A stretch of DNA of 30,510 nt, taken from a virus. Of the stretch, positions 3,569 through 24,290 are shown in pieces; position 1 is the stretch's first letter, and every line of letters starts with the position of its first letter. The DNA lies in the IMG/VR virus record IMGVR_UViG_3300025870_001407, positions 1 to 30,510 of that record. One strand, written 5' to 3'. The position numbers and the translations under genes were made by a program. The notes under the pieces are model-generated. The model was not told where the DNA came from. It searched no databases and worked only from the letters and a program-made list of their open reading frames with translations.

Positions 3569-3577
3569 TTTTTTCTA

Positions 3578-4645: not shown

Positions 4646-4667
4646 CTTTTAAAGTTTATTTGTTATA

Positions 4668-4699
4668 CAAATATACAAAAAATATTTTATTTATCCTAA
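4668..4699 (-). promoter_or_regulatory. Promoter-like element P3
   Basis: On the minus strand: TTAGGA, a 20-nt spacer and TATATTTG, with TTTG instead of TTCG before the -7 box. The upstream half lies inside the last codons of the thioredoxin gene. The expected leader to the ATG at 4645 is about 16 nt. Confidence 0.65.
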
Positions 4700-5005
4700 T
4701 AAAATTGATAAAACTTTATCAACTATCTCTTCTTTGTTTCCATATTCATTTGCAATTACCTTTCCTTTCTTAAAAGCAACTACCATTGGTATGTTTGTTA
4801 AATCAACTAACTCTCTACTATTTGGTGAGTTATCAGGATTAACATACACAAACGGAATTTGTCTATTTTGTTGTTGATTAGAAACTTTCTCAAAATATGG
4901 TTTAAGAACATCACAATTCCCACACCAATCAGTTCCAAACATAACCATTAACTTTGGTTGTGTTCGTATCAATACATCAAGTGAATCTGTTTCTAAGTTT
5001 ATCAT
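4691..5005 (-). CDS. Thioredoxin-like protein with WCGNC active site (104 aa)
   Basis: This protein has the thioredoxin fold. A strand (LMVMFGTDWC) leads into the redox motif WCGNC, followed by a helix, then FVYVNPDN, and NIPMVVAFKKGK, where the Pro is the conserved cis-proline. The motif differs from canonical WCGPC, so its redox potential may differ. Length is normal. It sits directly downstream of gp44 and a 33-aa ORF whose stop overlaps its ATG (ATGA). It may reduce ribonucleotide reductase or serve as a processivity or redox factor, but its partner is not known. A second, canonical thioredoxin lies next to nrdA. Confidence 0.85.
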   Translation of the reverse strand: MINLETDSLDVLIRTQPKLMVMFGTDWCGNCDVLKPYFEKVSNQQQNRQIPFVYVNPDNSPNSRELVDLTNIPMVVAFKKGKVIANEYGNKEEIVDKVLSILLG

Positions 5006-5103
5006 AGTAAAGGTCCTGCACTACCACATTTGATTGCGGCTTTCATTCGTTGTTCTTCTAACCAAGTTAGATAGTTCCAAACTTTTTTTAATTTGTTTAT
5101 CAT
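5002..5103 (-). CDS. Very small protein (33 aa) between gp44 and thioredoxin
   Basis: The ORF runs from ATG 5103-5101 to TGA 5004-5002. The sequence begins MINKLKKVWNYLTWLEEQRM and ends CGSAGPLL. It overlaps the gp44 stop and the thioredoxin start, both as ATGA. That is the arrangement expected of a translated, coupled gene. It is amphipathic and basic, with two Trp residues. The function is unknown. Confidence 0.6.
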   Translation of the reverse strand: MINKLKKVWNYLTWLEEQRMKAAIKCGSAGPLL

Positions 5104-6053
5104 AATATACCAACTATTTGAATTATACAACTCATAAAGGTAATTTCTTTATCTACTACCAATGCATCTTTGTGTTGTGATTCTGATAAGATTAGTATTA
5201 TGTTTGAGGTATTTGTACCACCATAAACTTCTACTTTTTCATATAAGAACGTATAAAGTTCTGTGAAATCTTGTACTCTCGCATCTGCAACTGCTTGTCT
5301 GATATTTTTCCATTTATTGGCTTTTGCATCAGAACCTTTAAGAATATCTACTACCTTTGATTTAATATCTGCATCAATTACAGAGGTTGTATCAACTTTT
5401 AATTCTCCCTTAGATGAATTCAACTGGCAAGTATTGATAATCTTTCTAATATCAGGATATGAACTATCAATGATAGGTACAAGGTTTGCTGGTTGGAAAC
5501 TAATAGATTCTCTACCTAAAATCTGTGATATTTGAACTGCAACATCTTTTTTAGTTGGAGGTACAATCTGAAACTCTTGTGTTCTACTTCTAATTGGTGA
5601 GATTACTTTCTCAACATAATTACAAGTTAGAATGAATCTACAATGTTTTGAGAACGTTTCCATCAAGTTTCTTAAAAGTGCTTGTGCATTTGGTGTCATA
5701 TAATCAAACTCATCAAGTATGATTATTTTCATATCTTTGAAACCAACAGTTGAAGCAAATCCTTTTACTTTATTACGAACTGTATCTACATTATTCTCAT
5801 CAGATGCATTTATAATGATATGGTCACAATCAATTGAATTTACAATTAACTTAGCTAATGTTGTTTTACCTGTACCAGCTTTACCGAAGAATAAAAGATG
5901 AGGGATTTCTCCACTTTCAAGATAATCCTTTACCTTATCCTTTAAATGTTCATTACCAACGTATTCTGTTAGTTTAGAAGGTCTGTACTTCTCTACCCAT
6001 AGAGAATTTGCTACCTTATTTGGTTGTGTGTTATTATCTTCGAAGAATGCCAT
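5100..6053 (-). CDS. 44: Clamp loader AAA+ ATPase subunit (T4 gp44-like)
   Basis: This is the ATPase that, with gp62, opens and loads the sliding clamp. It has the clamp-loader start SLWVEKYRPSKL, Walker A GKAGTGKT (residues 57-64), Walker B IILDEFD (111-117) and sensor-1 Asn in ILTCNY. The arginine-finger segment reads SRTQEF, where many loaders have SRC. The C-terminal collar domain follows. Length (317 aa) matches T4 gp44 (319 aa), so the gene is complete. It starts one base after the stop of a 74-aa gene and overlaps a 33-aa ORF at its end. Expression probably comes from element P4 at 6303. Confidence 0.95.
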   Translation of the reverse strand: MAFFEDNNTQPNKVANSLWVEKYRPSKLTEYVGNEHLKDKVKDYLESGEIPHLLFFGKAGTGKTTLAKLIVNSIDCDHIIINASDENNVDTVRNKVKGFASTVGFKDMKIIILDEFDYMTPNAQALLRNLMETFSKHCRFILTCNYVEKVISPIRSRTQEFQIVPPTKKDVAVQISQILGRESISFQPANLVPIIDSSYPDIRKIINTCQLNSSKGELKVDTTSVIDADIKSKVVDILKGSDAKANKWKNIRQAVADARVQDFTELYTFLYEKVEVYGGTNTSNIILILSESQHKDALVVDKEITFMSCIIQIVGIL

Positions 6054-6279: not shown

Positions 6280-6302
6280 TTTATCTATTATTATTTGTTA
6301 TA

Positions 6303-6334
6303 CAAATATACGAAAATTATTTGGACTTTCCTAA
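6303..6334 (-). promoter_or_regulatory. Promoter-like element P4
   Basis: On the minus strand: TTAGGA, a 20-nt spacer ending TTTTCG, then TATATTTG. It lies upstream of the 74-aa gene and gp44, with an expected leader of about 17 nt. The upstream half lies inside the last codons of the P-loop protein gene. Confidence 0.75.
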
Positions 6335-6862
6335 TAATTTCATAATTTTTTTTACTGTTTTACCATCAACCTTAATTGTATGATATGGAATATTGTTATC
6401 ATCCAATATTTTTTTACACAAATTATCAATTTCAATTGATTGTTCTAATTTCTGAAATCTCTCATCATCATTGTGTACGGTTTCACCTCGTTCTAATAAA
6501 ATATTAATATTATCATATCTTCCATGTAAATCAATGATTAAATCATGAAATGGTTGTCCATAAAATTCTGCAGGATAACCTTCCGTATAGTATTGATGAT
6601 ATATGGTAGAGAATAGAATAGGTGAATCGATTACTATATAATCTACTTTGTTATAACATTCAGCGATTCCTCTATGTTGATTTGCAAATACATAAAGTTG
6701 GTCTGATATTGCTGGTATATTATGGTCCCAAGCTAATCTCTTTGGGAATTCATATGGGTTATTACAACTGATATGTTGTTTCTTTAGTTTGTAGGTGATT
6801 CCATTTGCTATTGAAGATTTACCAATACCAGGTCCACCAAAGAGGTTTACTAATTTACTCAT
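6317..6862 (-). CDS. P-loop ATPase / nucleotide kinase-like protein
   Basis: The protein (181 aa) starts with a Walker A motif, NLFGGPGIGKSS, at about residues 6-17. A strand with acidic end (VDYIVIDSPIL) acts as a Walker-B-like segment. A later HNDDERFQ region may form a lid. The pattern matches a P-loop family seen in many phages and related to NadR/AAA_28-type kinases. The substrate cannot be assigned; a nucleotide or nucleoside is most plausible. The start overlaps the stop of the S1/P1 nuclease gene as ATGA. The 3' end carries the upstream half of promoter element P4. Confidence 0.8.
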   Translation of the reverse strand: MSKLVNLFGGPGIGKSSIANGITYKLKKQHISCNNPYEFPKRLAWDHNIPAISDQLYVFANQHRGIAECYNKVDYIVIDSPILFSTIYHQYYTEGYPAEFYGQPFHDLIIDLHGRYDNINILLERGETVHNDDERFQKLEQSIEIDNLCKKILDDNNIPYHTIKVDGKTVKKIMKLLGKSK

Positions 6863-7641
6863 TCTCCAAATATATTATTTAATAGGTTACCCAATCTGAT
6901 TCCAGCAAAATATAATCTTTCATCTACAATTGGTAGATTCTCATATACATAATCATATGATAAATATGAACCACTTTTTGTTTCATAAATCTTAGGTACA
7001 TACTGATGTGATTCATTTGCCCACTTGATAGCATTTCCTTGTTCTACTACTATATCTTTAAATTGGTTTTGTAGTTTATCTGCATATTCAGTATAACTCA
7101 TCTTGTAATCATCAATCATATCTGTATCCCATAGTACATGAAGATTCGTTTGATTCTCTGCTCCTTTTCTTCCTTTGAAGTTTACTTTGATTTTACTACC
7201 ACCATAATCTTCAAATCTTCCAGTATGTAAAGGTTGGTGCAAATCTCCTACCATATGAACCAAATACTTTAACCAAAACGCTTTCATCTCTTTTGATGCA
7301 GATGGTGATTGTAAAATAGGAATTGCAGTATTAATCATTTTTACTACATTTTCTTGTGTATGTTCTACTTCCTCATAATTTTTATCAATTGGAAGATTAA
7401 CATAATGCCAAGTTGAAAATTTATCAAAATCAGGATTACTCCTCATCTCATCTGCCCAAGTACTTGCAACTGCAAGTGTTTGTCCATCTAAAATTTCATT
7501 AACTCGTTGTTCTGTTGTTAGTGTTAATTGTCTTTGTGCAATTTCACCAACTGTTCTGTGTCCTATCTTACCCCAAAACATCGTTGTTGAAAACGATGTT
7601 AAGGTAAATAAGATTAAAACTAATATTAATAATTTTTTCAT
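6859..7641 (-). CDS. Secreted S1/P1-family zinc nuclease
   Basis: S1/P1 nucleases are tri-zinc enzymes that cut single-stranded DNA and RNA and remove 3'-phosphates. The protein has a Sec signal peptide (MKKLLILVLILFTLTSFS), and cleavage is expected just before WGKIGH, which would expose the Trp that binds zinc through its N-terminus. All nine family zinc ligands can be found, numbered from the MKK start: W23, H28, D64 (WADEM), H79 (WHYVNLP), H129, D133 and H139 (HMVGDLHQPLH), H168 and D172 (LHVLWDTD). Length is normal. An ATG two codons earlier (7647) is possible. I prefer 7641 because it overlaps the upstream stop as ATGA and gives a standard signal peptide. Location would be periplasmic or extracellular, unusual for a phage nuclease. 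Confidence 0.92.
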   Translation of the reverse strand: MKKLLILVLILFTLTSFSTTMFWGKIGHRTVGEIAQRQLTLTTEQRVNEILDGQTLAVASTWADEMRSNPDFDKFSTWHYVNLPIDKNYEEVEHTQENVVKMINTAIPILQSPSASKEMKAFWLKYLVHMVGDLHQPLHTGRFEDYGGSKIKVNFKGRKGAENQTNLHVLWDTDMIDDYKMSYTEYADKLQNQFKDIVVEQGNAIKWANESHQYVPKIYETKSGSYLSYDYVYENLPIVDERLYFAGIRLGNLLNNIFGE

Positions 7642-7883
7642 AACCATGTTTTTATAAGCGAATATATGTAACCAGTGATTCCTACTAAATTAAGTAAGGA
7701 TAAATTATATTGTTTTGTTCTTTGTGTTTGTACTGTAATGAGGATTAACCCCACAACCATTCCCATCTTTCCATAAATTGAATCGATAATGAATGGAGAA
7801 AGCATCATTAATGCTGTACCGAAGTATATTACACCATATTGATATAATAACTCTATTCTATTAGTTTTTTTTGTGCTTTTCAT
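7638..7883 (-). CDS. Small membrane protein (81 aa)
   Basis: After a basic, hydrophilic N-terminus (MKSTKKTNR) the protein has two or three hydrophobic segments, roughly residues 14-34, 38-50 and 62-78. It is therefore probably an inner-membrane protein. No family is recognised. The stop overlaps the S1/P1 nuclease start. The ATG lies only four bases beyond the T-run of a hairpin terminator that follows the TonB receptor. Expression would thus depend on read-through or an unrecognised promoter. It could be a holin-like or envelope-modifying protein, but nothing in the sequence proves this. Confidence 0.7.
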   Translation of the reverse strand: MKSTKKTNRIELLYQYGVIYFGTALMMLSPFIIDSIYGKMGMVVGLILITVQTQRTKQYNLSLLNLVGITGYIYSLIKTWL

Positions 7884-7886
7884 AAT

Positions 7887-7918
7887 AAAAAAGGGGGAAA
7901 TTAATCCCCCTTATTTTA
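7887..7918 (-). terminator. Rho-independent terminator hairpin after the TonB receptor gene
   Basis: On the minus strand an 8-bp stem (AAGGGGGA / TCCCCCTT) with a 6-nt A/T loop is followed by a run of six T. It begins 7 bp after the receptor stop codon. It ends just before the ATG of the next gene, so it may also act as an attenuator. The plus-strand version is followed by TTATTTT and could work in reverse, although no plus-strand gene ends here. Confidence 0.8.
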
Positions 7919-7924
7919 TAAGTT

Positions 7925-10639
7925 TTAGAATCTTACTTTTAGAGATGTGTTGAAAGTACGTCCGAATCCGAACCATACTGAGTTTCTCGTATCTACACCA
8001 TTCCATGTCTGTGAACTACCATCCGCGTGGATGTTAGTGTTAGACTCTGCAATGTAGTAAGTATCAAATAAGTTATTTACGTTAACTCTAAACGATGCAT
8101 CAGTTCCGAATAAATCAAACACATAAGTTGCTCCTAAATCAGCCAATCCATAAGACGGTAATTTTAAAGCTCCTTGGTTATCTGGTTGAGTAAATTCTGA
8201 ATCTGTGATTGAATAATCAGCATATAATCCATCAACGAATCTATATCCTAAATCAACTCTTAATCCTTGGATAATCTCGTAATCTGCTTCAACATAAGTT
8301 GTGAACTGAGCCGCATCTCCTACTTTAGCATCTTTTAGGTATAATGTACCTGTACCGATTGATTGTTGATTATCATCAAATAATTCTGCTGAGAAATCAT
8401 TAGTATATCTCCAATCACCGATTGATAACATACCTTTTAATCTCAACTTATCTGTTGGGTTATAAGAAGTTTCAACTTCGATACCATTGTGTACTACATC
8501 GATATCTTTAAATTGAGCTGAACCATCTACACCTTGTTGATTAGATAAACTTCTTTGAACGAATCTATTACCCCATACTGTTGAATATGCATTAACATTA
8601 ACTTTAAAGTTACTACCAATGAAACCATATCCTAATTCGAATGATTTAATTTCTTCGTTTTGTAAATCTGGATTAACATCATTTGCATAGTTAGGGAATA
8701 CTGCTCCAAATTGTGGTTGTCTTGAAATCATACCAGCATTAAAGAATACGTTTTGTTTATCATCAATGTTGTAGTTTGCACCACCTTTAAGATAACCTCC
8801 ACCTTGATTCTTAGTATCTGATTCTGGATTATCTGGTTGGTCGAAATAATCAAGTCTTTGGAAAGATTGATTAGAAGTACCTGCTTGTAATACTGCAGAA
8901 ATCTTATCATTCTTATATTCAACTAAACCATTGAATCCTTGCCATCCAACTTTACCAACATTGTAATAATCAATCTTCGGTCCTTTTAAACCAGTACCTT
9001 TAAATGGAGATGCCTCCACTAAAGTATTGATAATTTGACCATTAGAGTTTCTATTACCCGTTGAGTAGTATCCATCTAATCCCATTAAGTGGTTAAGAGT
9101 TCTATAATGATAACCAGTATAGTTTCTTAAATCCACACCAACTGAATATTTCCAATTTCCACTTTCGTATTCTAAGTTAGAGATTGCTCCAACCCAGTCA
9201 TGAGAGTTCATAGATGCTCTTCTTACAAGAACTTCTCTATTAACACCATCATCTCTGAATCCATTAGAACCAATTAACTGACCTTCAAATGCACCAATAG
9301 CTCCACTATATGGGTCTGTTGTATCTTGATTGTTAGCAACAACTGCATCGAAATCTATAAATCCTTCAGGAGTTCTTGCACCTCTACCATTTTCTAAGTA
9401 GTGTTCAGTTAAATCCTTTCTGAATGGTAAGATATCAGATGTAGCGTTTCTAAAATTGTTTCCTCTTGGACCAGTTCCTCCACCTCTACCAGCTGAACCA
9501 TATAATGATGTAGCTAATTTAAGGTTATCGTTGATTTCCCAATCCCAATTTAATGTTGCTAATGGTTTGTTATAGAAGTTTCTTCTCATTGAGAATTCTT
9601 CACCATTTAAAACACCACCATTGGAATTCCATCTTCTATCAATTCCTTCTTTACCGAAGTTTTGGTAATCTCTAATAGAAACCCAAACATCTCTTTGGTG
9701 ATGCCATTGTCCAGCACCTAAGAAAGAAAAGTTAACAGAATGGTCTGAATCTTCAGGTGCATATCCTAACGCAAAGAAGTAAGTGTAACCCTCTCCTTTT
9801 GTGTTATAGATATAACCATCACCTTGCCACTTAGAAAGTAACACAGATGTAGCCCATCCATTATCAGATAATCCTGTTGATACAGAAGCAGTAGTTTTAA
9901 AGTATCCATCATTACCAAATGATTGTTGTACAGATGCACCTTTTCTTGCTTCAGCAGCTTTTGTAAAGATTGATACAGTTCCACCAACAGATGGTACTGC
10001 TAATCTTGAAGCTCCCAATCCTCTCTGTAATTGGATACCACTTGCAACATCAGTTAAACCTTGCCAGTTAGACCAATAAACCCATCCGTTTTCCATATCA
10101 TTAACTGGTTGCCCATTAATAAGGAAAGAAGTGTTTCTTTGGTCAAATCCTCTTAAAGAGATTCTTGAATCACCATAACCACCACCTTGTTTGGTAGCGT
10201 AAACTCCAGGAGTTTTATTCATGATTTCAGGAAACTCTTGGTTACCTACTTTTAACGCAATCTCTGATGGTGAAATAGTTGATACAGCAACAGGAGTTTC
10301 TCTCACTTTCGCAATATCAATTACACCAGAAGTTACTACAACCTCACCTAATTGATTTAGGTCTGGTTTTAAGTAGATTTCCATAAAATCATCCACAGTA
10401 GAAACAACAAATGCAGTTTCATACCCTAGATAGGAGATAATCAATTTTTCTCCGTTTTTAGCATCGAGTTCAAATGTACCATCAAAACCAGTTACAACTC
10501 CATCCGCCGTTCCTTGAACGATGATGGTTGCTCCTGGTAGAGGGTCATTAGTTTCGATGTCTAATACTTTCCCACTAACTTGTGCAAAAGTAACGATACT
10601 CGTTAAGAGCATCAATCCAACTAATAATAGTTTTCTCAT
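7925..10639 (-). CDS. Complete TonB-dependent outer-membrane receptor (904 aa)
   Basis: TonB-dependent receptors import large substrates across the outer membrane using TonB energy. The protein has a signal peptide (MRKLLLVGLMLLTSIVTFA, cleavage before QVSGK). Next comes a CarboxypepD_reg-like domain (about 20-95, VSGKVLDIETNDPLPGATI), the N-terminal extension common in Bacteroidota. A TonB-box-like EVVVTSG follows. The plug domain (about 110-225) has RISLRGFDQRN, FLINGQPVNDMENG and GGTVSIFTKA. A long beta-barrel then carries alternating aromatic strands. The end has NVNNLFDTYYIAES and a final ...SLKVRF with the C-terminal aromatic needed for barrel assembly. There is no frameshift. No SusD partner is nearby, and the substrate is unknown. 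It looks like a host-derived gene. It lies between guaB-like and gp44 modules and ends at its own terminator. Confidence 0.95.
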   Translation of the reverse strand: MRKLLLVGLMLLTSIVTFAQVSGKVLDIETNDPLPGATIIVQGTADGVVTGFDGTFELDAKNGEKLIISYLGYETAFVVSTVDDFMEIYLKPDLNQLGEVVVTSGVIDIAKVRETPVAVSTISPSEIALKVGNQEFPEIMNKTPGVYATKQGGGYGDSRISLRGFDQRNTSFLINGQPVNDMENGWVYWSNWQGLTDVASGIQLQRGLGASRLAVPSVGGTVSIFTKAAEARKGASVQQSFGNDGYFKTTASVSTGLSDNGWATSVLLSKWQGDGYIYNTKGEGYTYFFALGYAPEDSDHSVNFSFLGAGQWHHQRDVWVSIRDYQNFGKEGIDRRWNSNGGVLNGEEFSMRRNFYNKPLATLNWDWEINDNLKLATSLYGSAGRGGGTGPRGNNFRNATSDILPFRKDLTEHYLENGRGARTPEGFIDFDAVVANNQDTTDPYSGAIGAFEGQLIGSNGFRDDGVNREVLVRRASMNSHDWVGAISNLEYESGNWKYSVGVDLRNYTGYHYRTLNHLMGLDGYYSTGNRNSNGQIINTLVEASPFKGTGLKGPKIDYYNVGKVGWQGFNGLVEYKNDKISAVLQAGTSNQSFQRLDYFDQPDNPESDTKNQGGGYLKGGANYNIDDKQNVFFNAGMISRQPQFGAVFPNYANDVNPDLQNEEIKSFELGYGFIGSNFKVNVNAYSTVWGNRFVQRSLSNQQGVDGSAQFKDIDVVHNGIEVETSYNPTDKLRLKGMLSIGDWRYTNDFSAELFDDNQQSIGTGTLYLKDAKVGDAAQFTTYVEADYEIIQGLRVDLGYRFVDGLYADYSITDSEFTQPDNQGALKLPSYGLADLGATYVFDLFGTDASFRVNVNNLFDTYYIAESNTNIHADGSSQTWNGVDTRNSVWFGFGRTFNTSLKVRF

Positions 10640-10680
10640 AATAATTGTTTTTAATTTAATTAAATTGTATAACCTTGTCT

Positions 10681-11751
10681 TTATAATAAATGTGGTTTTG
10701 CTTCATTAATACCCGAATTTGTAACCTGAACATAAGGTGGATTAAAATCTTCTAATGTTTGAGCACCTCCATAAGAGAGTGCCGATTTTACTCCATCAAT
10801 TAACCCATTCACTATGAACTTAACTCCGCCCTTGTAGGGAATGGTTGTAGATTCACCTTCTACATTTCTAGCCTTTTGACCATGTGTTACTTTCGTTTCT
10901 AACGATGCAGAACCTCTATATCTCTTATAAAGACCTTTTTGAGTTTCAACAATCTGACCTGGTGCTTCATCAGTACCAGCGATTAGAGAACCCAACATAA
11001 CAGAACTCGCTCCAATTGCAAGAGCTTTTGATATATCACCACTTGAACGAATACCTCCATCAGCCATAACGGGTGTTTTCGCAACAGATACTATATCTTC
11101 TAAACAACTTACATTCGGTACTCCGAATCCTGTCTTAACTCTTGTTGTACAAAGTGAACCTCCACCAATACCGACTCTCAACCCATCTGCTCCCCAAGAT
11201 TCTAATTCTTGAGCTGCTTCTTTGGTTGCGATATTACCAGCGATAATGTCTACTTTGTCATCAAGGTTACTTTTCAACCATCCCAACATTGTTTCAACGT
11301 TTTTGTGGTGTCCATGAGCTACATCAATAACGATAATGTTACAACCATTATCTACTAAAGATTTTGCTCTATCTTTATCACTTTCACTTACTCCAATGGA
11401 TGCCATAATTGGAACATGAGGAATTTCTGAATGCCAATTGTCAATCATGACTCCCCATGATTCAAATTGATTTCCCCATTCATCGGAATAAATTCTATGA
11501 TATAGTTCTTTGATTATTTTGGATTGTTCTTCTATTGAATTGAAACGGTGAATACAACCCACTCCACCGAGTAAAAATATCTTGTAAGCCATTTCTAATC
11601 CACAAACTGTATCCATCGGAGATGCTACAATTGGATTTAAAATACCATATCTACGAGATACAAGTGTTTTTAAGTCAATTTGAGTACGAGAGGGAACAGT
11701 AGAGTACTGAGGTACTAACTGAATATCATCGTATGTTAGAGAGTTTCTCAT
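10681..11751 (-). CDS. guaB: IMP dehydrogenase / GMP reductase family enzyme without CBS domains
   Basis: The 356-aa TIM-barrel protein begins LTYDDIQLVPQYSTVPSR. It has the catalytic loop GIGGGSLCTTRVKTGFGVP (catalytic Cys), the phosphate-binding MADGGIRSSGD and MLGSLIAGTDEAPG, and the C-terminal VTNSGINEAKPH. The usual two CBS domains of IMP dehydrogenase are absent. The flap is short and lacks the Arg-Tyr pair of IMP dehydrogenases. It has an EG-x4-PYKG end, and the loop has KTG after CTTR; both resemble GMP reductase. The VIDVAHGHHK segment and the C-terminus look more like IMP dehydrogenase. It may therefore oxidise IMP to XMP or reduce GMP to IMP. The start overlaps the GroES stop by 4 bp. 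Confidence 0.85.
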   Translation of the reverse strand: MRNSLTYDDIQLVPQYSTVPSRTQIDLKTLVSRRYGILNPIVASPMDTVCGLEMAYKIFLLGGVGCIHRFNSIEEQSKIIKELYHRIYSDEWGNQFESWGVMIDNWHSEIPHVPIMASIGVSESDKDRAKSLVDNGCNIIVIDVAHGHHKNVETMLGWLKSNLDDKVDIIAGNIATKEAAQELESWGADGLRVGIGGGSLCTTRVKTGFGVPNVSCLEDIVSVAKTPVMADGGIRSSGDISKALAIGASSVMLGSLIAGTDEAPGQIVETQKGLYKRYRGSASLETKVTHGQKARNVEGESTTIPYKGGVKFIVNGLIDGVKSALSYGGAQTLEDFNPPYVQVTNSGINEAKPHLL

Positions 11752-12050
11752 TGAATAAAACCTAAAAGTTCATGTTCGTGAAAAATAAGAAGTTCTTCAC
11801 CATCTACTTTTATAGTATTAGAAGCTTCTTGTTTGGTATATAATACCTTATCACCCACACTAACTGTTATTGGGATTTTAGTTCCAGTTTGTGAGAAAAG
11901 ACCAGTACCAACTGATACTACTTCTCCATAAACTTTAGTTCCCCTTGAGATGGAATCAGTAAGGATTAATCCTCCTTTTGATTTCTTTTCTTCGTTTTTA
12001 GAATCAGGTCTTACCAAAATTCTATCACCTAATGGTTTAAAATTACTCAT
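11748..12050 (-). CDS. groES: GroES co-chaperonin
   Basis: This 100-aa protein is a standard Cpn10: FKPLGDRILVRPD at the N-terminus, the mobile-loop region GGLILTDSISRGTKVYGEVV that contacts GroEL, SVGDKVLYTK, and an EHELLGFIQ end. It caps the GroEL ring as a heptamer. T4 encodes the very divergent gp31 for this role. The present protein is instead of bacterial type, which suggests acquisition from a host. It is about 4.3 kb away from the phage groEL gene rather than adjacent. The stop overlaps the downstream guaB-like gene (ATGA), and the start overlaps a 73-aa gene by 8 bp. Confidence 0.95.
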   Translation of the reverse strand: MSNFKPLGDRILVRPDSKNEEKKSKGGLILTDSISRGTKVYGEVVSVGTGLFSQTGTKIPITVSVGDKVLYTKQEASNTIKVDGEELLIFHEHELLGFIQ

Positions 12051-12264
12051 CTTCTTTTTTATTTATATTATTTTCAAATGTATTTGTTGTTGTGTACCAA
12101 GGTTGATTTGGAATATTGGGTTCGGTTTGCCAATATGGATTTGGTTGATATGGTATATAAGTAATACCACCCCTCGAAGTTTCATTAGTTAACAATACTA
12201 CTGCTTTTTCAGCGGTAATATGTCCTTTATCTAGTAACTCCTGTACTATTTCTGCTTTAGTCAT
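12043..12264 (-). CDS. Hypothetical 73-aa protein upstream of groES
   Basis: The first 30 residues (MTKAEIVQELLDKGHITAEK) form a helix-turn-helix-like amphipathic pair. The rest is Pro/Tyr/Trp/Asn-rich (IPYQPNPYWQTEPNI) and probably disordered, with an acidic end. I do not recognise a family. The gene starts 6 bp after a methyltransferase-like gene and overlaps groES by 8 bp. It therefore sits in the same transcript as the chaperonin and methyltransferase genes. Confidence 0.65.
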   Translation of the reverse strand: MTKAEIVQELLDKGHITAEKAVVLLTNETSRGGITYIPYQPNPYWQTEPNIPNQPWYTTTNTFENNINKKEDE

Positions 12265-12270: not shown

Positions 12271-13899
12271 TTATTTTTTATGGAATACGAATATAGGTTC
12301 AAATTTATATGATTTCCCATTATGTTTTACTGCGTTTTTAATTCCACTCTTGGAAGGGTCTAATCCAACCATTCGTGTCATTAACATTTTAAGCTTTCCT
12401 TTATACTCACACCCAAGTTGATTTAATATATCAATTGAATCTTGTTCCAATGGATAGTAAGTACTTTCACCTATTTTAATATCTGCAATATTCCACAAAA
12501 TATATCTATCTTTATTTAAGTATTCGTAAATTGTTTTTAAGGTTGGTTTTAAGAAATTATCTCTCCAATCTTCGTACTCAGAATATGCTTTGAAAGACTG
12601 TGTTTCATCTTGTGAATATTGTTCTCTATTAAAATATGGTGGTGATGTAAATGATATATCAACTTTACCTTTATACTTCTGAAACTTTGGATTGTTTGAA
12701 ATTAATTCAGAACCATCTTGAAAGAGTTCATATGTATTAGATTGTGTTTCAACATCAAAAAATGATGTAAGTTTATCCGAATGATTATCTATACAATTCT
12801 TGTTGTAAAAATCTGCTACATACTCATAACGAGAAATACCTTCATTATCTAAGAAGTTATCAGGATTAGGGTCTGTACCAACATAATGAATTTTCTTACG
12901 AGAACTCATTGCACCGATAATTCTACCACCCCAACCACTCGATGAATCATACACAGTTATAGGTTCAGTTGAATCAATATGATTAGTATAGTTTTCGTAA
13001 ATCCACTTTGCAGTTAATGCAGGAAAGTTTACAGCTGCTTGTCCACAACTTAAACGTATTACTCTTAACATATTAGGAAATAATCCTTCAGTTTTATCAT
13101 ACCATCTAACCATATAAGAATATTTCGTTACCTTCCCCACTTTAGATGTTGAAGATTCTTCTATTTTATTTATGTTAGAAACTTGTCTTGAATTTAAGTA
13201 ATCATTATCTACTAATTCATTTACTTCATCTGATGTTAGATATATGTTTGTAAACCCAACATACTCATCATTAAATGTTCCGTAGTTATCAAATGTACTA
13301 TCTTTTGATTTCGTTAAATAGATATCGTAGTTTTCCCATTTACCTGTGAATACTTTTCCATCTTTAACATCTTTGATAAATTCGTATCCACTCTGACCAT
13401 TCCAAAAGGGATTCTCATCTTTTTTATTAACAAGTGAACGAGACCAAACATACATAGAATCTCTTCGTACTGCTCTCTTCATTATCTTAATAAACTGCTC
13501 TTCCATTGTAGGGTCACCAAAATAATCATAAATAGATAAACCACCTTCAGCAGTTTTTCCACTTGATATTTTAGTTTTCAACATTGTAGGAAAGAACTGA
13601 TTTACAACAGATGCATCCTTGTTAAAGTTTTTGATAATACCCAACGATTCATCATCACCACTTAAATCTTTTTCAATGAAATCACAATCATTTGATTTTA
13701 ATTTACCAAGTGATGTAATAATCTTATCATGATTTTTTCCGATAACAGGTGGATTTCCGAACTCATCCCATTGTTCAGTAACTTCTTTACGCAAAGTCTT
13801 TGCCCAATCTTCGAATTCGGAATCACTAGTATCAAGTAATTCATGGAAAAGAATATTTGATTTAAAATCTACAAATTTATTTCGTTGGTAATAATGCAT
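12271..13899 (-). CDS. Predicted SAM-dependent DNA methyltransferase, paralogue A (542 aa)
   Basis: The C-terminal half is a Rossmann methyltransferase. It has motif I YDSSSGWGGR (residues 317-326), the GTDPNP strand end (341-346), catalytic motif IV TSPPYF (418-423) and a following ILWNIADIK strand. The (S/T)PPY form is typical of N4-cytosine methyltransferases, while adenine enzymes more often have D/NPPY. Motif I preceding IV without a C-terminal extension resembles the gamma order. About 290 N-terminal residues of unknown fold (including ENPFWNGQ, VVNQFFPTMLKT) could recognise target sequence. Paralogue B lies 3 bp upstream and is clearly homologous along its whole length. Substrate and base are inferred. 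Non-DNA substrates are not excluded. Confidence 0.75.
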   Translation of the reverse strand: MHYYQRNKFVDFKSNILFHELLDTSDSEFEDWAKTLRKEVTEQWDEFGNPPVIGKNHDKIITSLGKLKSNDCDFIEKDLSGDDESLGIIKNFNKDASVVNQFFPTMLKTKISSGKTAEGGLSIYDYFGDPTMEEQFIKIMKRAVRRDSMYVWSRSLVNKKDENPFWNGQSGYEFIKDVKDGKVFTGKWENYDIYLTKSKDSTFDNYGTFNDEYVGFTNIYLTSDEVNELVDNDYLNSRQVSNINKIEESSTSKVGKVTKYSYMVRWYDKTEGLFPNMLRVIRLSCGQAAVNFPALTAKWIYENYTNHIDSTEPITVYDSSSGWGGRIIGAMSSRKKIHYVGTDPNPDNFLDNEGISRYEYVADFYNKNCIDNHSDKLTSFFDVETQSNTYELFQDGSELISNNPKFQKYKGKVDISFTSPPYFNREQYSQDETQSFKAYSEYEDWRDNFLKPTLKTIYEYLNKDRYILWNIADIKIGESTYYPLEQDSIDILNQLGCEYKGKLKMLMTRMVGLDPSKSGIKNAVKHNGKSYKFEPIFVFHKK

Positions 13900-13902
13900 T
13901 AA

Positions 13903-15555
13903 TTACTTTTTATGGAATACGAATATAGGTTCATATTTGTACCAAGTACTTCCAACTTGTACTAAGTTTTTCATACCTGTTTCAATTGATTCTCGTTTGT
14001 TTACATTTGCACCAATCATTGCTGCCATTGTCATCTTAAGTTTACCTTTATATTCACCACCAAGTGATTGAAGAATATCAATCGAATCTTGTTCTAGTGG
14101 AAAGTAAATTGATTTACCAATTTTGATATCAGCAATATTCCATAGGATATATCTATCATTTTTAAGATACTCATAAATTGTTGTTAGAGTAGGTCTTAAA
14201 AAGTTATCTCTCCAATCATCATACTCACCATACGCTTTGAACGATTGGTTCTCATCTTGTGAATATTGTTCTCTATTAAAGTAAGGAGGTGAAGTAAATG
14301 AAATATCTAATTTACCTTTATACTTTTGGAACTCAGGATTGTTTTTAATTAACTCTGAACCATCTTGAAATAACTCATAGGTGTTACCTTGCTTTTCTAC
14401 TGCAAAGAAGTTACTCATTGCTTCTGAATGAGTATCAACTACTTTATCATTATAGAACTTTGCCATGTATTCATATCGAGAAATACCCAAATCATCAATA
14501 AAGTTATCTGGATTAGGGTCTGTACCAACGTAGTGAACTTTCTTTCTACTACTCATTGCTCCTGCAATTCTACCACCCCAACCACTAGATGAATCATAAA
14601 TATGTAATGGTTCTTCTTGTTCAATATGATTAGTATAGTTTTCGTAAATCCATTTTGCAGTTAATGCAGGAAAGTTTACAGCAGGTTGTCCTAAACCTAA
14701 TCTAAATGCTTGTATAATCTTAGGGAAAATACCATCTGATTTTTCATACCACCTTACATTGTAAACATAATTAACAACTTTACCATTTTTTAAAGTTTTT
14801 GAATTAGGTATATCACCAATATTTGAAATCTGACGTTTGTTTAGAAATCCTTCTTTTACTAATCTTCTTACTTGTTTACCAGTTAAGAATAGGATTGTTC
14901 CATACGTTTGTTTAGTTTCATTTAAAGGTCCGTATTTTCTAATAGATGCTTCAGTTGTTCTGTGAAGTACGATATCGTAGTTTTCCCATTTACCTTTGAA
15001 TATCTTACCATCATATACCTCCTTTACGAATTTATATGGTGTTTGTCCATTCCAAAAAGGATTCTCATCTTTAACAGTTGTTAATGAACGACACCATGCA
15101 TACATGGAATCTCTCTTAACCGCTCTTGCCATTGTTTTAATGAAACCACCTTCTAAACTATCTTCTGCAAAATAATCATAAATTGATGTTCCACCATCAG
15201 CTGATTCACCAATAGAAATTCTAGTTTTCAACATTGTTGGAAAAAACTGATTTACTACACTTTGACTTTTATTAAAGTTTTTTATAATCCCCAATGATTC
15301 TTTATCTTCATCATCTTTAATAAAGAAATTACATTCATCTTTTTTCAACTTACCAAAATGGCTGATAATTTGTTCTTCTGTTTTTCCTTTAACAGGAGGT
15401 TGCCCATCAATATCCCACGCATCGACAATCTCCTTACGGATTAACCTTGCCCAATCCTCAAACTCACCATCAGTCATATCAAGTAACTCATGGTAAGTTT
15501 TTTTAGATTTGAACTCAGAAAATTTACTTTGTTCGTAAAAATATTTAGTGCTCAT
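13903..15555 (-). CDS. Predicted SAM-dependent DNA methyltransferase, paralogue B (550 aa)
   Basis: The full-length layout matches the downstream paralogue: the N-terminus contains FHELLD/YHELLD and EFEDWA, then NQFFPTMLKT and ENPFWNGQ. The C-terminal half has YDSSSGWGGR, GTDPNP, TSPPYFNREQYSQDE and ILWNIADIKIG. Differences concentrate between about residues 190 and 260 and at the C-terminal end. That is where divergent target recognition would be expected if the copies modify different sites. The start overlaps the sliding-clamp stop by one base (TAATG), so both paralogues are probably translated from the clamp transcript and made early. The activity is predicted, not shown. Confidence 0.75.
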   Translation of the reverse strand: MSTKYFYEQSKFSEFKSKKTYHELLDMTDGEFEDWARLIRKEIVDAWDIDGQPPVKGKTEEQIISHFGKLKKDECNFFIKDDEDKESLGIIKNFNKSQSVVNQFFPTMLKTRISIGESADGGTSIYDYFAEDSLEGGFIKTMARAVKRDSMYAWCRSLTTVKDENPFWNGQTPYKFVKEVYDGKIFKGKWENYDIVLHRTTEASIRKYGPLNETKQTYGTILFLTGKQVRRLVKEGFLNKRQISNIGDIPNSKTLKNGKVVNYVYNVRWYEKSDGIFPKIIQAFRLGLGQPAVNFPALTAKWIYENYTNHIEQEEPLHIYDSSSGWGGRIAGAMSSRKKVHYVGTDPNPDNFIDDLGISRYEYMAKFYNDKVVDTHSEAMSNFFAVEKQGNTYELFQDGSELIKNNPEFQKYKGKLDISFTSPPYFNREQYSQDENQSFKAYGEYDDWRDNFLRPTLTTIYEYLKNDRYILWNIADIKIGKSIYFPLEQDSIDILQSLGGEYKGKLKMTMAAMIGANVNKRESIETGMKNLVQVGSTWYKYEPIFVFHKK

Positions 15556-16268
15556 TAAGATTGAATTTCTACAAGAAAGTAATTTGATTCATAATTGTCA
15601 ATTGAAAAGGAAATGTGGGCTAATCCCTGAGAAGAAATCTTTAAAGTTGCATCAGTTGCTTCTTTGTTTGCAACTAATATCTCTTTTAGGTATGTTGCAG
15701 AAAATGAAATTGGGTCTACATCACCTTCACATACACAATCAACATCAATATTAATTCTGTTTGTGTTAATATTAGAATATCCTAAGATAATCTGACCAGC
15801 ACCTTCTTTACAAGTAAATGTAAAATTGTTCTCATCTTGCAATGCACCCTTTGCTTTGATAAATGTAGATATAAAGTTTGAATCCAATTTAATTTCTACA
15901 TTAAAATCTGGTAATTGTTTCAAATCTGGTACATTAGGGATAACTGATAAATCAGCTAACATATAATTTACAGATGTTGATTTATCTTTGAATTTTAAAG
16001 ATACTGCTTTACCATCAATATCATTCATTGAGAAATCTACATCGTTACCAAGAACCGATAACATCTTTGTTAGTTTGGTTGTATCATATACACCAAATGA
16101 TGCATCTGAACTATCAAACTCTTTCATACTTACACTTCCTAAAACTGATTTATCATCAGAGATGAAAGAAGTAGTTAGAGAACCATCTTTTGATTCCCAC
16201 TTTACAGATTCTACTAGACCTGATAGGTTGTACTTTGATACGAACCTGCTTAATGATTGTTTTTCCAT
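15555..16268 (-). CDS. 45: Sliding clamp (T4 gp45-like)
   Basis: This 237-aa protein fits the T4 gp45 family in length (228 in T4) and in pattern. It starts with the SLSRFVSKYNLSGLVESVKW helix-strand unit. Two repeated clamp domains follow, with VYDTTKLTKMLSVLG and PISFSATYLKEILVANK as the corresponding helical segments. The trimeric ring gives processivity to the polymerase and, in T4, activates late transcription. The ATG follows promoter-like element P5 with a leader of about 24 nt. The stop overlaps the methyltransferase B start. Identification rests on family pattern plus the presence of gp43, gp44 and gp62 in the same window. Confidence 0.9.
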   Translation of the reverse strand: MEKQSLSRFVSKYNLSGLVESVKWESKDGSLTTSFISDDKSVLGSVSMKEFDSSDASFGVYDTTKLTKMLSVLGNDVDFSMNDIDGKAVSLKFKDKSTSVNYMLADLSVIPNVPDLKQLPDFNVEIKLDSNFISTFIKAKGALQDENNFTFTCKEGAGQIILGYSNINTNRINIDVDCVCEGDVDPISFSATYLKEILVANKEATDATLKISSQGLAHISFSIDNYESNYFLVEIQS

Positions 16269-16298
16269 TGTTTACTTAATTATAATTTATTATTTGTA

Positions 16299-16330
16299 CA
16301 AATATACGAAATTTATTTGATACTACCAAA
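16299..16330 (-). promoter_or_regulatory. Promoter-like element P5 (sliding clamp)
   Basis: On the minus strand: TTTGG, a 20-nt spacer ending ATTTCG, then TATATTTG. This is an exact match to the Bacteroidota -33 TTTG and -7 TAnnTTTG boxes. It lies between the groEL stop and the clamp ATG. Confidence 0.8.
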
Positions 16331-16346
16331 CTTTTTCGTATTTATT

Positions 16347-18168
<1,822 letters not shown>

Positions 18169-18758: not shown

Positions 18759-21275
18759 CTAAAAACTGAAGAATTTTTCAGCAGTTCTTTGTTCACTTAT
18801 TACTTCACCCCAACCAACAGCATCAAAGAAAACTTGAAGTTTATGTCCCAATTCTCTTTCGAAGATTTTATTGTGGTCAATGTAAGTAGCTAGGAACTTC
18901 TCAATCTCTGGTGGGTCTTTATAACCTGTGAATGCTAAACCATCAATTCCCAATGGATTATCTTTAAGATATACCCACTTAACTTTATCACCATTTTTTA
19001 ATGGTTCATAATTGAAAGGAGCATTGAAATGTTTTAAACAATCATTATATAGAATTGCTGCTTTAACATGAGCAGGTGTTCCTTTCATCATAGAGAATCG
19101 TTCTCTTTTACCTTTCGGCATATATTTTTTAAGATTCTTTACTGCTGAGTTCTTTGCAATCTCGGATGTAGGTCTATTTACCATATTCTTTTTGAAATCT
19201 AAAACATAATCTGAAATCTCTTCTTCTGTTTTACCTTTTAGAATATCAATAAGAACTGTACCCATACATTCTTGGAATGCTTTTGGGAATGATGAACGTT
19301 TTACATCTAATCCTTTTACATCTAACTTATCTACTGGTACACCATTATCTGATATAATCCATTGTGCATATCGTTTCTTTGCTACCCACAATCCTGCTTT
19401 TGCAACATACTCCTTCTTAATCTCTAATCTGTGTTTATCTTTATCAACATTTAAAACCTTTGTTGAAAGTATATCATAGAAATCATTAAGGTAATCTTGC
19501 ATCTCTTCTGCAATATCATTTACATAACCAGCAATTGTATCTTGTTCTTCATCTTTCCAATTAGGAAATCGTTTATCCATTAAAGGAACTGCTGAGAAGA
19601 ATACAGAATCAGTATCGATGTATATGTTAGAATCCAAATCAGGAGTATTAAGCTCCTTGTTGTACTTGATGTTAGCCATATCCGCAGTTGATTTAATAAC
19701 TGTCTGTCCTGTCGTGGTAACAGCGGTAGCATTATCAACATCATAGAACCTAAAGGCAGGAAGACCAAGAACACCATATAAAGAGTTAAGTAAAATCTTC
19801 TGAACCAACTGACGTTTGTGATAGAAGGCATATTTTTCATCATCTCCTGCTTTCCCATATTTTTTCATTTCATTTTTATACTCAACTCGTTTTTGAAACC
19901 ACAAGTCAAGAATACCAGGTATACAACCAACGGTATCGGTTCGGTAAAGTACACCATTCGATGCAACTGAGAATTTGGAATCATCTAAATACTTTCTTAA
20001 ATTTTCTTTAGATATGGTATTATCTCCGATATAATAAGTATCAACTTCCCCTTTAACAAATTTATTTGCATCCCAATCTTGAATCTTACCAATCTTTGAT
20101 TCGGGTGAAATGTTGAGGGTCATAATAATAGAAGGATATAGAGATGTTAAATCTAAATCATATATCCAATCATATTTTCCAACAATTGGAGCTTTTACAT
20201 ATGCTCCAATAAATTTCTCTTGATTATTATCACGAATTTCTTGCATTCGTTCTTGCCTATCTGCTGGTTTGTTTGGTGCAACCAATCCCTTTCTTCTAAG
20301 ATAAGTTAACATTGCTCCTTCAAGATACTTTGATGAGTAAACGAAATCTTCATATGGAACGTGTCCCGCATGACAGATACCTCTACACAAATCGATGAAC
20401 TGAAGTTTTTTATCAAACTCAACTACTAACTCAACATCTACTAAGTTATATTCGATAAACTTTTCAATATCATCTCTAAATAATTGGTCCAAGTTTCCAT
20501 CATACTCAATCTTTCCTCTACCCAATTCTTTTTGTGCAACACTATCCAATCGATAGTTTGGTAGTTCACCATAATTGTAATTCTTATAAAGTGTAATGTA
20601 ATCTAAATAAGATACACCTGCCATAAAGTATCTTTTACGATAAGGTGACCAGAAACATTGTCCGATTGGTGATAATCTATTTGCTTGTTTCTCACCCAAT
20701 AATCTTTTGATTCTGTTGTATAACATTGGTGTATCAAAGAAATCAATATTCCAACCGGTAACGATTGAGGGATTAATCATCTCATATAACTCCAAATACT
20801 TAGCTAACATATCTCGTTCATCTTGGAATGGGAATACGATACACTTATCAGTAGTCTTTTCTTTCATACCACCTTCCTTATCAACAACCAATACCCAATA
20901 CTGGTCTGTTGCAGAATCGTGAAGTGCAATTGAAGTTAATTCATTCTTAGCTTCTAGTGGGTCTGGTAATCCACTTATCATTTCACACTCAATATCATAT
21001 GTTAAGATAACATGACCGTCTGATATATCATCTTTATCTGAATACATATCTACTAATGCTCGTGTAGTTTCAGGTACATCTGACTCAAATAAATTTGGGT
21101 CATCTTTCTTAAACTTATAAATTTTGGATAAACTATCTCCATAAATAGATTTATACTCACCTCTTTGTGCAGGTTCATAAGCATATCGTGTGTATGGAAA
21201 TGCAGAATATCCTCTTTGGTCATCCCAAAGATGGATTAAATTTCTTTCTCGTTGGTAATAAATGTTTTGATACAA
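18759..21275 (-). CDS. 43: Family B replicative DNA polymerase (T4 gp43-like)
   Basis: This 838-aa protein has both domains of the T4-type replicase. The 3'-5' exonuclease has Exo I DIECE (94-98), Exo II TGWNIDFFD (173-181) and Exo III YNLVD (276-280). The polymerase has motif A DLDLTSLYPS (373-382), motif B KILLNSLYG (about 493-501) and motif C YIDTDS (552-557). All catalytic acids are present. It is somewhat shorter than T4 gp43 (898 aa), and no split or intein is seen. The C-terminal end (VISEQRTAEKFFSF) may hold the clamp-binding tail. The gene is driven by promoter-like element P6 with a leader of about 18 nt. Confidence 0.97.
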   Translation of the reverse strand: MYQNIYYQRERNLIHLWDDQRGYSAFPYTRYAYEPAQRGEYKSIYGDSLSKIYKFKKDDPNLFESDVPETTRALVDMYSDKDDISDGHVILTYDIECEMISGLPDPLEAKNELTSIALHDSATDQYWVLVVDKEGGMKEKTTDKCIVFPFQDERDMLAKYLELYEMINPSIVTGWNIDFFDTPMLYNRIKRLLGEKQANRLSPIGQCFWSPYRKRYFMAGVSYLDYITLYKNYNYGELPNYRLDSVAQKELGRGKIEYDGNLDQLFRDDIEKFIEYNLVDVELVVEFDKKLQFIDLCRGICHAGHVPYEDFVYSSKYLEGAMLTYLRRKGLVAPNKPADRQERMQEIRDNNQEKFIGAYVKAPIVGKYDWIYDLDLTSLYPSIIMTLNISPESKIGKIQDWDANKFVKGEVDTYYIGDNTISKENLRKYLDDSKFSVASNGVLYRTDTVGCIPGILDLWFQKRVEYKNEMKKYGKAGDDEKYAFYHKRQLVQKILLNSLYGVLGLPAFRFYDVDNATAVTTTGQTVIKSTADMANIKYNKELNTPDLDSNIYIDTDSVFFSAVPLMDKRFPNWKDEEQDTIAGYVNDIAEEMQDYLNDFYDILSTKVLNVDKDKHRLEIKKEYVAKAGLWVAKKRYAQWIISDNGVPVDKLDVKGLDVKRSSFPKAFQECMGTVLIDILKGKTEEEISDYVLDFKKNMVNRPTSEIAKNSAVKNLKKYMPKGKRERFSMMKGTPAHVKAAILYNDCLKHFNAPFNYEPLKNGDKVKWVYLKDNPLGIDGLAFTGYKDPPEIEKFLATYIDHNKIFERELGHKLQVFFDAVGWGEVISEQRTAEKFFSF

Positions 21276-24288: not shown

Positions 24289-24290
24289 CT

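What the first reader, a model, noticed from the sequence alone, without database searches (positions are those of the whole stretch)
7925..10639. Intact TonB-dependent receptor encoded by a T4-like phage
A full-length receptor with signal peptide, CarboxypepD_reg-like domain, TonB-box-like sequence, plug and complete barrel sits between replication genes. Phages use such receptors to enter cells; carrying one is unexpected. It could change nutrient uptake during infection, replace or mask the receptor used by rivals, or serve as bait for released virions. It has its own terminator, so it may be separately controlled.
Basis: partly seen in the sequence, partly recalled or inferred. Interest (0 to 1): 0.8.

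Follow-up and report, generated by a model that had tools for sequence, protein, structure and literature searches.

The report
Phage-carried outer-membrane nutrient gate
Some viruses of bacteria carry an intact copy of a bacterial outer-membrane import gate, the sort of protein other viruses use to get in, and probably use it to keep an infected cell fed.

Summary
The gene is real, intact and phage-borne: 904 aa, minus strand, 7925-10639, with CarboxypepD_reg, Plug and barrel domains. Another viral contig is colinear at 98.5% over 18 kb, so a chimera is very unlikely. In IMG/VR, 434 stretches encode relatives; of the best 80, none has an internal stop and 75 are complete. dN/dS is 0.15-0.22 in 18 of 19 comparisons. 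Viral and bacterial copies interleave on trees; a single viral clade is rejected. It is accessory cargo: a close relative has 11 bp where the window has a 5.4-kb cassette. A terminator-like hairpin follows it in 66 of 79 viral loci, against 27 of 883 other ORFs. No Bacteroidota-type promoter pattern lies just upstream, so it probably ends an operon with gp45. One of 50 phage records also encodes TonB nearby. Most likely it is a working transporter, taken from hosts, that feeds the infected cell. The substrate is unknown: exported nucleases and nucleotide genes beside several viral copies suggest nucleic-acid breakdown products, but bacterial neighbours partly suggest beta-glucan. Prior art: a different TonB-receptor family in megaphages (PMC9723777).

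The parts
7925..10639 (-). TonB-dependent receptor, 904 aa: CarboxypepD_reg-like domain, TonB-box-like motif, plug, barrel
7891..7912 (-). terminator-like hairpin (8 bp stem, 5 G-C) plus T-rich tail directly after the receptor gene
   Evidence: such a hairpin within 70 bp in 66 of 79 viral and 69 of 79 genome-contig loci, against 27 of 883 other viral ORFs
6864..12262 (-). 5.4-kb cargo cassette (p73, GroES, IMPDH/GMPR, receptor, p81, S1/P1 nuclease), replaced by 11 bp in relative L163
10681..11751 (-). IMP dehydrogenase / GMP reductase-type enzyme directly upstream of the receptor
   Evidence: PF00478; directly upstream in 16 of 75 viral loci with an upstream ORF
11748..12050 (-). GroES co-chaperonin
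   Evidence: phrog_3188
7638..7883 (-). p81, small hydrophobic protein (by eye), no family; the protein at the same place in L034 matches Imp-YgjV
6859..7647 (-). S1/P1 nuclease with a signal-peptide-like start (probably exported)
   Evidence: PF02265, 5.9e-62; start read by eye; co-occurrence
6317..6862 (-). nucleotide-kinase-like P-loop protein (AAA_28; PHROG thymidylate kinase), first gene after the cassette
15555..16268 (-). sliding clamp gp45-like, first gene of the probable transcription unit that ends with the receptor
   Evidence: phrog_947, 9e-5; weak
16287..16350 (-). copy of a repeated promoter-like element (TTTG-N20-TATATTTG) upstream of gp45; nearest copy upstream of the receptor
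   Evidence: repeat family; pattern match (the pattern alone is no more frequent than in shuffles); promoter consensus recalled
18759..21275 (-). family B DNA polymerase, gp43-like: phage context
   Evidence: phrog_262, 8.9e-185
5100..6053 (-). clamp loader gp44-like: phage context
   Evidence: phrog_168, 1e-82

Best explanation
The gene is auxiliary metabolic cargo: a transport-competent outer-membrane TonB-dependent transporter, exchanged with Bacteroidota hosts and kept by selection. Shown by computation: intact reading frame, purifying selection, conserved plug and extracellular loops, more than one phage-host exchange, presence/absence as a cassette, a terminator tied to the gene. Inferred: the host group and the direction of transfer; that it is transcribed with replication genes as the last gene of a unit starting at gp45; that the protein is exported, folds in the outer membrane and uses the host's TonB-ExbBD; and that it keeps importing a scarce small nutrient while the host's own synthesis is being replaced. 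Which nutrient is open. My working choice is nucleic-acid breakdown products (oligonucleotides, nucleotides or nucleosides) that feed phage DNA synthesis.
For: Complete and undamaged: 0 of 80 viral loci have an internal stop, 75 of 80 are complete, 72 of these 75 end in an aromatic residue. dN/dS 0.15-0.22 in 18 of 19 comparisons with the window copy; the 99% identical L001 gives 0.45 on few changes; over 20 copies mean pN is 0.035 in the plug, 0.07 at the TonB box, 0.086 in the barrel and 0.26 in the CarboxypepD domain. Viral and close bacterial copies differ by one fixed residue. Viral copies are not one clade: 11 label changes forced by starred branches on 158 rows, AU p = 2.7e-67 on 58 rows. 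Accessory: relatives L163 and L206 lack the gene; 12 of 46 records with a related polymerase hold a Plug domain, many being fragments. Another tailed phage (L044's record; baseplate wedge subunit) encodes TonB 3 kb upstream of its receptor, as expected for energised transport. Substrate hints: S1/P1 nuclease within four genes downstream in 12 of 80 loci, and in 9 of 50 receptor-bearing records against 0 of 40 others; Endonuclease_NS directly upstream in 4 loci; a phosphoribosyltransferase directly downstream in 4 and one gene further in a fifth (L054 and L057 tested singly); in MAG contigs L098 and L099 the receptor is followed by S1/P1 nuclease, and in L099 also by a nucleoside transporter and Endonuclease_NS.
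Against: No expression, location or transport data. The TonB-box letters vary more (1.22 bits over 40 viral rows) than plug or barrel, and a few rows have lost the usual form. TonB was found in 1 of 50 viral records. Replication modules are rich in nucleotide genes anyway: near-receptor ORFs had 20 such family matches of 127 against 8 of 127 farther away (p = 0.026; my sums from top-25 lists, lineages not independent). Endonuclease_NS is as common without the receptor (11 of 50 against 7 of 40). Bacterial context is mixed: phosphoglucose isomerase at 36 of 80 loci, glycoside hydrolases beside about 5, S1/P1 nuclease near 2 of 80 although 40 of 50 such genomes have one somewhere. The transporter part is much stronger than the substrate part.
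Confidence: 0.6

Rival explanations
1. Same mechanism, but the substrate is a glycan oligomer such as laminarin or another beta-glucan, giving the infected cell carbon and energy.
For: Phosphoglucose isomerase lies at 36 of 80 genome-contig loci (family checked on one). Among 110 neighbour ORFs of non-pgi loci, 3 match GH16, 3 GH17 and 3 GH2, which I place by eye at L104, L110, L111 and L094, L104, L147 (L104 and L110 tested singly). The profile's best solved relatives are SusC homologues, over the N-terminal 179 positions only. Laminarin is a main predicted substrate of marine Bacteroidetes (PMC6794258, passages).
Against: No SusD partner was recognised among the window ORFs scanned; the SusC/RagA model is far below cut-off (93 against 368 bits). 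The bacterial synteny may be housekeeping. No glycoside hydrolase is among the 25 commonest of 59 families near viral copies in 24 loci.
Confidence: 0.2
2. Same mechanism, but the substrate is an iron-siderophore or a cobalamin-type cofactor, for instance to serve iron-dependent ribonucleotide reductase during phage DNA synthesis.
For: Best fold matches are BtuB (Z 37.6) and siderophore receptors; the profile finds FecA by sequence at about 1e-9. nrdA or its thioredoxin is directly upstream in 9 of 75 viral loci.
Against: Fold class does not fix the ligand; many small-solute transporters score alike. B12 equivalog TIGR01779 is far below cut-off (43 against 600 bits). No siderophore or cobalamin family is among the 25 commonest of 115 neighbour families (a part of the list only).
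Confidence: 0.25
3. Superinfection exclusion or receptor exchange: the phage copy displaces, masks or competes with the host's receptor so that rival phages or colicin-like toxins fail.
For: Phages do use TonB receptors, and phage lipoproteins block FhuA (review PMC11436027, passages; PDB 8a60). Phage-encoded porins that replace a host receptor are recalled, not found by a call.
Against: Viral loops track bacterial loops (87% same consensus), one fixed difference. A copy with the same surface should add adsorption sites, not remove them. The plug, needed for transport, is the most conserved part.
Confidence: 0.1
4. Assembly chimera, host contamination, or a neutral passenger.
For: Closest bacterial copies reach 74% identity; viral status of each contig rests on IMG/VR and was not checked one by one; at least one MAG contig holding the gene is a phage (L106), so binning errors occur.
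Against: Colinear second contig at 98.47%, 434 viral stretches, several phage backgrounds, no stops in 80, purifying selection.
Confidence: 0.01

Closest known systems
Megaphage TonB-dependent receptors (Mar_Mega_1, LR745206; PMC9723777 whole text)
   Same: Phage-encoded TonB receptor, suggested by those authors to raise carbohydrate uptake during infection
   Different: The genes I read in LR745206, LR756502, LR756501 and Lak-A1 are 660-689 aa and match the window protein at 25-35% over 24-36% of its length; Pfam on the LR745206 gene shows plug and barrel but no CarboxypepD domain. The Mar_Mega_1 protein was seen only as the probable BFVD hit A0A8D9FQQ5, 13% identity
TonB-dependent receptor of Bacteroidota genomes, often near phosphoglucose isomerase
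   Same: Direct homologue, up to 74% identity, same domains, nearly the same conserved residues in the close set
   Different: Bacterial housekeeping context; the viral copy sits among phage replication genes
Phage-encoded ExbB of Lentisphaerae phages (PMC11361711, passages)
   Same: A TonB-system part proposed as auxiliary metabolic gene in a phage
   Different: Inner-membrane energiser, not a receptor, in other hosts
Nutrient-uptake auxiliary genes of cyanophages such as pstS (recalled)
   Same: Works like: an uptake gene shared with hosts and carried by phages
   Different: Periplasmic binding protein for phosphate, not an outer-membrane gate
Phage-encoded outer-membrane porins such as Lc of phage PA-2 (recalled)
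   Same: Outer-membrane barrel carried by a phage
   Different: Lambdoid prophage porin linked to exclusion; no plug, not TonB-driven

Membership tests
TonB-dependent transporter | Plug domain | tested here: met
   PF07715, 47.7 bits against cut-off 23.9
TonB-dependent transporter | 22-strand barrel closed by the plug | tested here: met
   PF00593 35.2 against 27 bits; AF2 model and Z 32-38 to BtuB, FhuA, FecA; 22 strands by my reading of the DSSP string
TonB-dependent transporter | TonB box | tested here: met
   LGEVVVTS at 97-104; a similar motif in most of the 79 aligned rows by eye, divergent in some (L057, L058, L059, L064); 1.22 bits over 40 viral rows
TonB-dependent transporter | Export signal | tested here: inconclusive
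   Typical start by eye and simple hydrophobicity; no predictor at hand
TonB-dependent transporter | TonB-dependent uptake of a ligand | not testable with these tools
   needs experiment
SusC/RagA glycan importer | NCBIfam TIGR04056 cut-off | tested here: not met
   93.2 bits against 368.25, N-terminal part only
SusC/RagA glycan importer | SusD lipoprotein partner | tested here: inconclusive
   None recognised among the window ORFs scanned; not every ORF was scanned against Pfam and the record is a fragment
BtuB (vitamin B12 receptor) | NCBIfam TIGR01779 cut-off | tested here: not met
   43.1 bits against 599.7
Megaphage TonB receptor family | Full-length sequence kinship | tested here: not met
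   LR756502 matched over 36% at 25.8%, LR745206 over 24% at 34.7%; length 660-689 aa
Auxiliary metabolic gene | Homologue of a host gene, exchanged with hosts | tested here: met
   bacterial homologues up to 74%; virus and bacterial rows interleave; direction of transfer not tested
Auxiliary metabolic gene | Accessory in the phage lineage and kept by selection | tested here: met
   empty sites L163, L206; dN/dS 0.15-0.22 in 18 of 19 comparisons
Auxiliary metabolic gene | Expressed and active during infection | not testable with these tools
   needs transcript, protein and uptake data

The most novel reading that the evidence does not exclude
Phages of Bacteroidota carry a modular nucleic-acid scavenging route: exported nucleases (S1/P1 and an Endonuclease_NS lipoprotein) cut DNA or RNA outside or in the periplasm, the phage's TonB receptor (in one phage with its own TonB) pulls fragments through the outer membrane, and phage salvage enzymes (phosphoribosyltransferases, IMPDH/GMPR, nucleotide kinase, ribonucleotide reductase) turn them into new phage genomes, so that lysed neighbours are recycled into virions.
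Probability: 0.2. Interest if true: 0.87.

Novelty: new variant of a known kind. Interest (0 to 1): 0.62.

Why it matters
Phages are known to enter through TonB receptors; here phages with quite different gene contents carry such a receptor themselves and keep it intact. If confirmed, infected Bacteroidota (important recyclers of algal matter in the sea; recalled) feed partly through virus-made gates, and the virus chooses what the cell imports. The 11-bp empty site in a close relative, and the phage with its own TonB, make the function testable by comparing otherwise similar phages. Ten full-text searches of the open PMC library were answered; in their listings and the papers I opened I saw no report of this receptor family in phages. 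Papers outside that library were not searched.

Tried and rejected
Chimera or contamination: rejected. Separate promoter: a recalled -33/-7 Bacteroidota-type pattern was found in the 200 bp upstream of 1 of 80 viral copies; the pattern itself is no more frequent in the window than in shuffles (3 against 2.4), so only the repeat family supports the promoter reading, and its function is inferred.

Substrate from fold: no help; BtuB, siderophore, haem and PQQ transporters all score within a few Z units. Substrate from bacterial neighbours: mixed (phosphoglucose isomerase 36 of 80, glycoside hydrolases at about 5 loci by eye, S1/P1 nuclease 2, RecA 3 of 110 ORFs). One search scanned 110 of 127 neighbour ORFs chosen from 25 non-pgi loci (17 left out to keep the list short) and shows 25 of 115 families. 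One search scanned 127 ORFs within three genes of the receptor in 24 viral loci (four near-duplicate loci and ORFs under 75 aa left out, one 2739-aa ORF dropped) and shows 25 of 59 families; its control, scanned 127 of 305 ORFs five or more genes away and shows 25 of 63. Endonuclease_NS as a partner: not specific (11 of 50 against 7 of 40). S1/P1 nuclease: 9 of 50 against 0 of 40, p = 0.004, but the 40 are 34 records without any Plug match plus 6 with a megaphage-type receptor, many are fragments, and lineages are not independent; the 50 are the records of 50 of the 80 loci.

Trees: 158 rows were the window, 80 viral and 77 of 80 genome-contig loci (three under 780 aa dropped). The 58-row tree was a hand-picked subset (32 viral, 26 bacterial, 15 of these pgi-linked); L106 was left out because its ORFs match viral ORFs at 100%. 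The dN/dS figures use 20 viral copies. Strand and loop borders are my reading of the DSSP string. A search with a distant bacterial copy (L138) returned mostly the same viral contigs at 41-47% (best 80 of 403); one distant phage copy exists (L334, 847 aa). A search for further phage TonB proteins found only the same contig, by a short-pattern method that finds close relatives only. The habitat of the viral contigs was not looked up.
Full report
What is there. The window is a 30,510-bp IMG/VR virus record. Its main genes lie on the minus strand and include a T4-like replication set: polymerase (phrog_262), clamp (weak match), clamp loader (phrog_168), exonuclease, ribonucleotide reductase large subunit, GroEL and GroES. 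The ORF at 7925-10639 encodes 904 aa without a stop. Pfam gives CarbopepD_reg_2, Plug and TonB barrel above their cut-offs. An AlphaFold2 model from 79 aligned relatives (pLDDT 85.3, pTM 0.80) matches solved TonB-dependent transporters along plug and barrel, best Z 37.6 to BtuB, with FhuA, FecA and others close.

It is a phage gene. L001, from another IMG/VR contig, is colinear with the window over 17,978 bp at 98.47%. 434 of 435 pattern-matched viral stretches encode relatives at E <= 1e-3; the best 80 (65-99% identity) were kept. In those 80 loci the receptor stands in several different phage gene backgrounds; the viral status of each contig rests on IMG/VR and was not checked one by one. 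None of the 80 has an internal stop; 75 are complete at both ends; the other 5 are open at one end. In the GenBank phage collection 79 records match, all under 60% identity and two over most of the length (34-35%), so that collection holds no close relative.

Where it came from. The best 80 genome-contig relatives reach 41-74% identity, in Bacteroidota and a few Balneolaceae (Balneolota) records by their titles. At 36 of 80 phosphoglucose isomerase lies in the same stretch (Pfam checked on one), with an M23 peptidase and a DUF3108 protein further upstream in about 30. On a 158-row tree the 81 viral rows need 15 label changes, at least 11 forced by starred branches, and the window lies in a purely viral clade of 28 rows. 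On a 58-row set, forcing viral rows into one clade is rejected (AU p = 2.7e-67). At least one 'cell' row is a phage contig binned into a MAG (L106), so the number of transfers is uncertain, but more than one is well supported. The direction of each transfer was not tested.

It is cargo. In L163, whose polymerase is 94-95% identical, the alignment passes from window position 12263 to 6863 with 11 bp in between: the 5.4-kb cassette p73-GroES-IMPDH-receptor-p81-S1/P1 nuclease is absent. L206 keeps p73 and GroES but has 5 bp where the window has 6401-11757. In other loci the receptor follows IMPDH, GroES, gp62, gp44, MT542, nrdA or its thioredoxin. 12 of 46 records with a related polymerase hold a Plug domain; many records are short, so absence is weak evidence there.

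It is kept working. Against the window copy, 18 of 19 viral copies give dN/dS 0.15-0.22 (my Nei-Gojobori script); the 99% identical L001 gives 0.45 on very few changes. Over 20 viral copies the mean pN is 0.035 in the plug, 0.07 at the TonB box, 0.086 in the barrel and 0.26 in the CarboxypepD domain. Between 40 viral and 17 close bacterial rows one position is fixed differently (Y651F, over 80% on each side); consensus agrees at 87% of loop, 86% of strand and 99% of plug positions; loops are no more variable than strands in the viral set (0.69 bits each). Against this, the TonB-box letters vary (1.22 bits) and some rows lack the usual form. On the whole this is what a retained transporter shows; a decoy with a changed surface would not.

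Expression. A hairpin with a T-rich tail follows the stop codon (7912-7891). With one criterion (at least 4 G-C pairs, within 70 bp), 66 of 79 viral and 69 of 79 genome-contig copies have one, against 27 of 883 other plus-strand ORFs of at least 100 aa in the same viral loci (p = 2e-66). A promoter-like repeat family of 7 to 8 copies lies upstream of gp45 (16287-16350), the polymerase and other genes; no copy lies between gp45 and the receptor. I infer a unit from gp45 to the receptor, closed by this terminator. That argues against 'separately controlled'.

How it probably works. The protein would be exported, fold into the outer membrane and be driven by the host's TonB-ExbBD. Support for energised transport comes from L044's record, a tailed phage (baseplate wedge subunit phrog_219) that encodes a TonB-like protein (215 aa from ATG, 238 from an upstream TTG; TonB_C 1.8e-22) 3 kb upstream of its receptor. 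TonB_C was found in 1 of 50 viral records. The simplest function is to keep, or raise, import of one scarce solute while host gene expression is replaced.

Which solute. For nucleic-acid products: S1/P1 nuclease with a signal-like start lies within four genes downstream of the receptor in 12 of 80 loci, and in 9 of 50 receptor-bearing records against 0 of 40 others; an Endonuclease_NS protein is directly upstream in L054, L055, L068 and L076 (L054 tested singly, with a lipobox-like start); phosphoribosyltransferases are directly downstream in L054, L055, L057 and L076 and one gene further in L058; and MAG contig L099 has receptor, S1/P1 nuclease, Na-dependent nucleoside transporter (opposite strand) and Endonuclease_NS in one stretch. 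Against: replication modules are full of nucleotide genes (20 of 127 near, 8 of 127 far, p = 0.026, my sums from top-25 lists), Endonuclease_NS is not receptor-specific, S1/P1 nuclease occurs in 40 of 50 bacterial genomes (37 above cut-off) but near the receptor in 2 of 80 loci, and bacterial neighbours also include glycoside hydrolases at about 5 loci and phosphoglucose isomerase at 36. Iron or cobalamin remains possible on fold grounds. In Riemerella, insertions in a SusC/RagA-type gene lower natural transformation (PMC8459023, passages), so a DNA-linked role for such proteins has a precedent, but not in this family. I give transport of some solute 0.6 and the nucleic-acid route 0.2.

Compared with what is known. 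Megaphages Mar_Mega_1 and LR745206 were reported with a SusC-like TonB receptor, suggested to boost carbohydrate uptake (PMC9723777, whole text). I read intact 660-689 aa receptor-like ORFs of another family in LR745206, LR756502, LR756501 and Lak-A1; Pfam was run on the first and NCBIfam, all below cut-off, on LR756502 and Lak-A1. A phage-encoded ExbB has been proposed as an auxiliary gene (PMC11361711, passages). New here are the family, its abundance in viral contigs, repeated phage-host exchange, the empty-site cassette, the gene-tied terminator and a phage TonB. The kind, a phage-carried uptake gene, is known; this is a new variant.

Noticed in passing
L044:2955-3599 (record G008, 46 kb): A tailed phage encodes a TonB-like protein (TonB_C 1.8e-22) 3 kb upstream of its TonB receptor.
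   Followed up: partly
window 3525-3588, 4656-4719, 6291-6354, 16287-16350, 21288-21351, 24245-24308, 24765-24807, 27899-27962: Repeated 43-64 nt element upstream of several genes, on the minus strand like TTTGG...TATATTTG, resembling Bacteroidota promoters (resemblance recalled).
   Followed up: partly
L328:249-857, L330, L331, L332, L333: Endonuclease_NS proteins with a lipobox-like start in relatives of the window phage, in three of them beside structural-looking ORFs (by eye): exported or virion-linked nucleases in phages.
   Followed up: partly
L329:3573-5546 (record of L027): A 252-kb phage record carries a second, 658-aa TonB receptor of another family, about 1.4 kb after an Endonuclease_NS ORF.
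   Followed up: partly
L254:1726-3705, L255:1954-4002, L256:2516-4582, L257:2481-4523: Huge phages, including Lak-A1, hold intact 660-689 aa TonB-receptor-like ORFs in unannotated records (Pfam on L254; NCBIfam on L255 and L256, below cut-off).
   Followed up: partly
window 12271-15555: Two neighbouring methyltransferase-like genes (542 and 550 aa) about 72% identical in DNA over most of their length: probably a duplication.
   Followed up: no
L001-L161, 70 bp after the receptor: Stems of the terminator seem to start G-rich in viral copies and C-rich in many pgi-linked bacterial copies (not counted).
   Followed up: no
L106: A Crocinitomicaceae MAG contig is a phage: its five ORFs match viral ORFs at 100%, and its receptor is identical to that of L078.
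   Followed up: yes
window 18759-21275: Nearest polymerase in the GenBank phage collection is that of Microcystis phage Mel-JY01, 52.8% identity over the whole length; the other nine rows shown are 30-34%.
   Followed up: no
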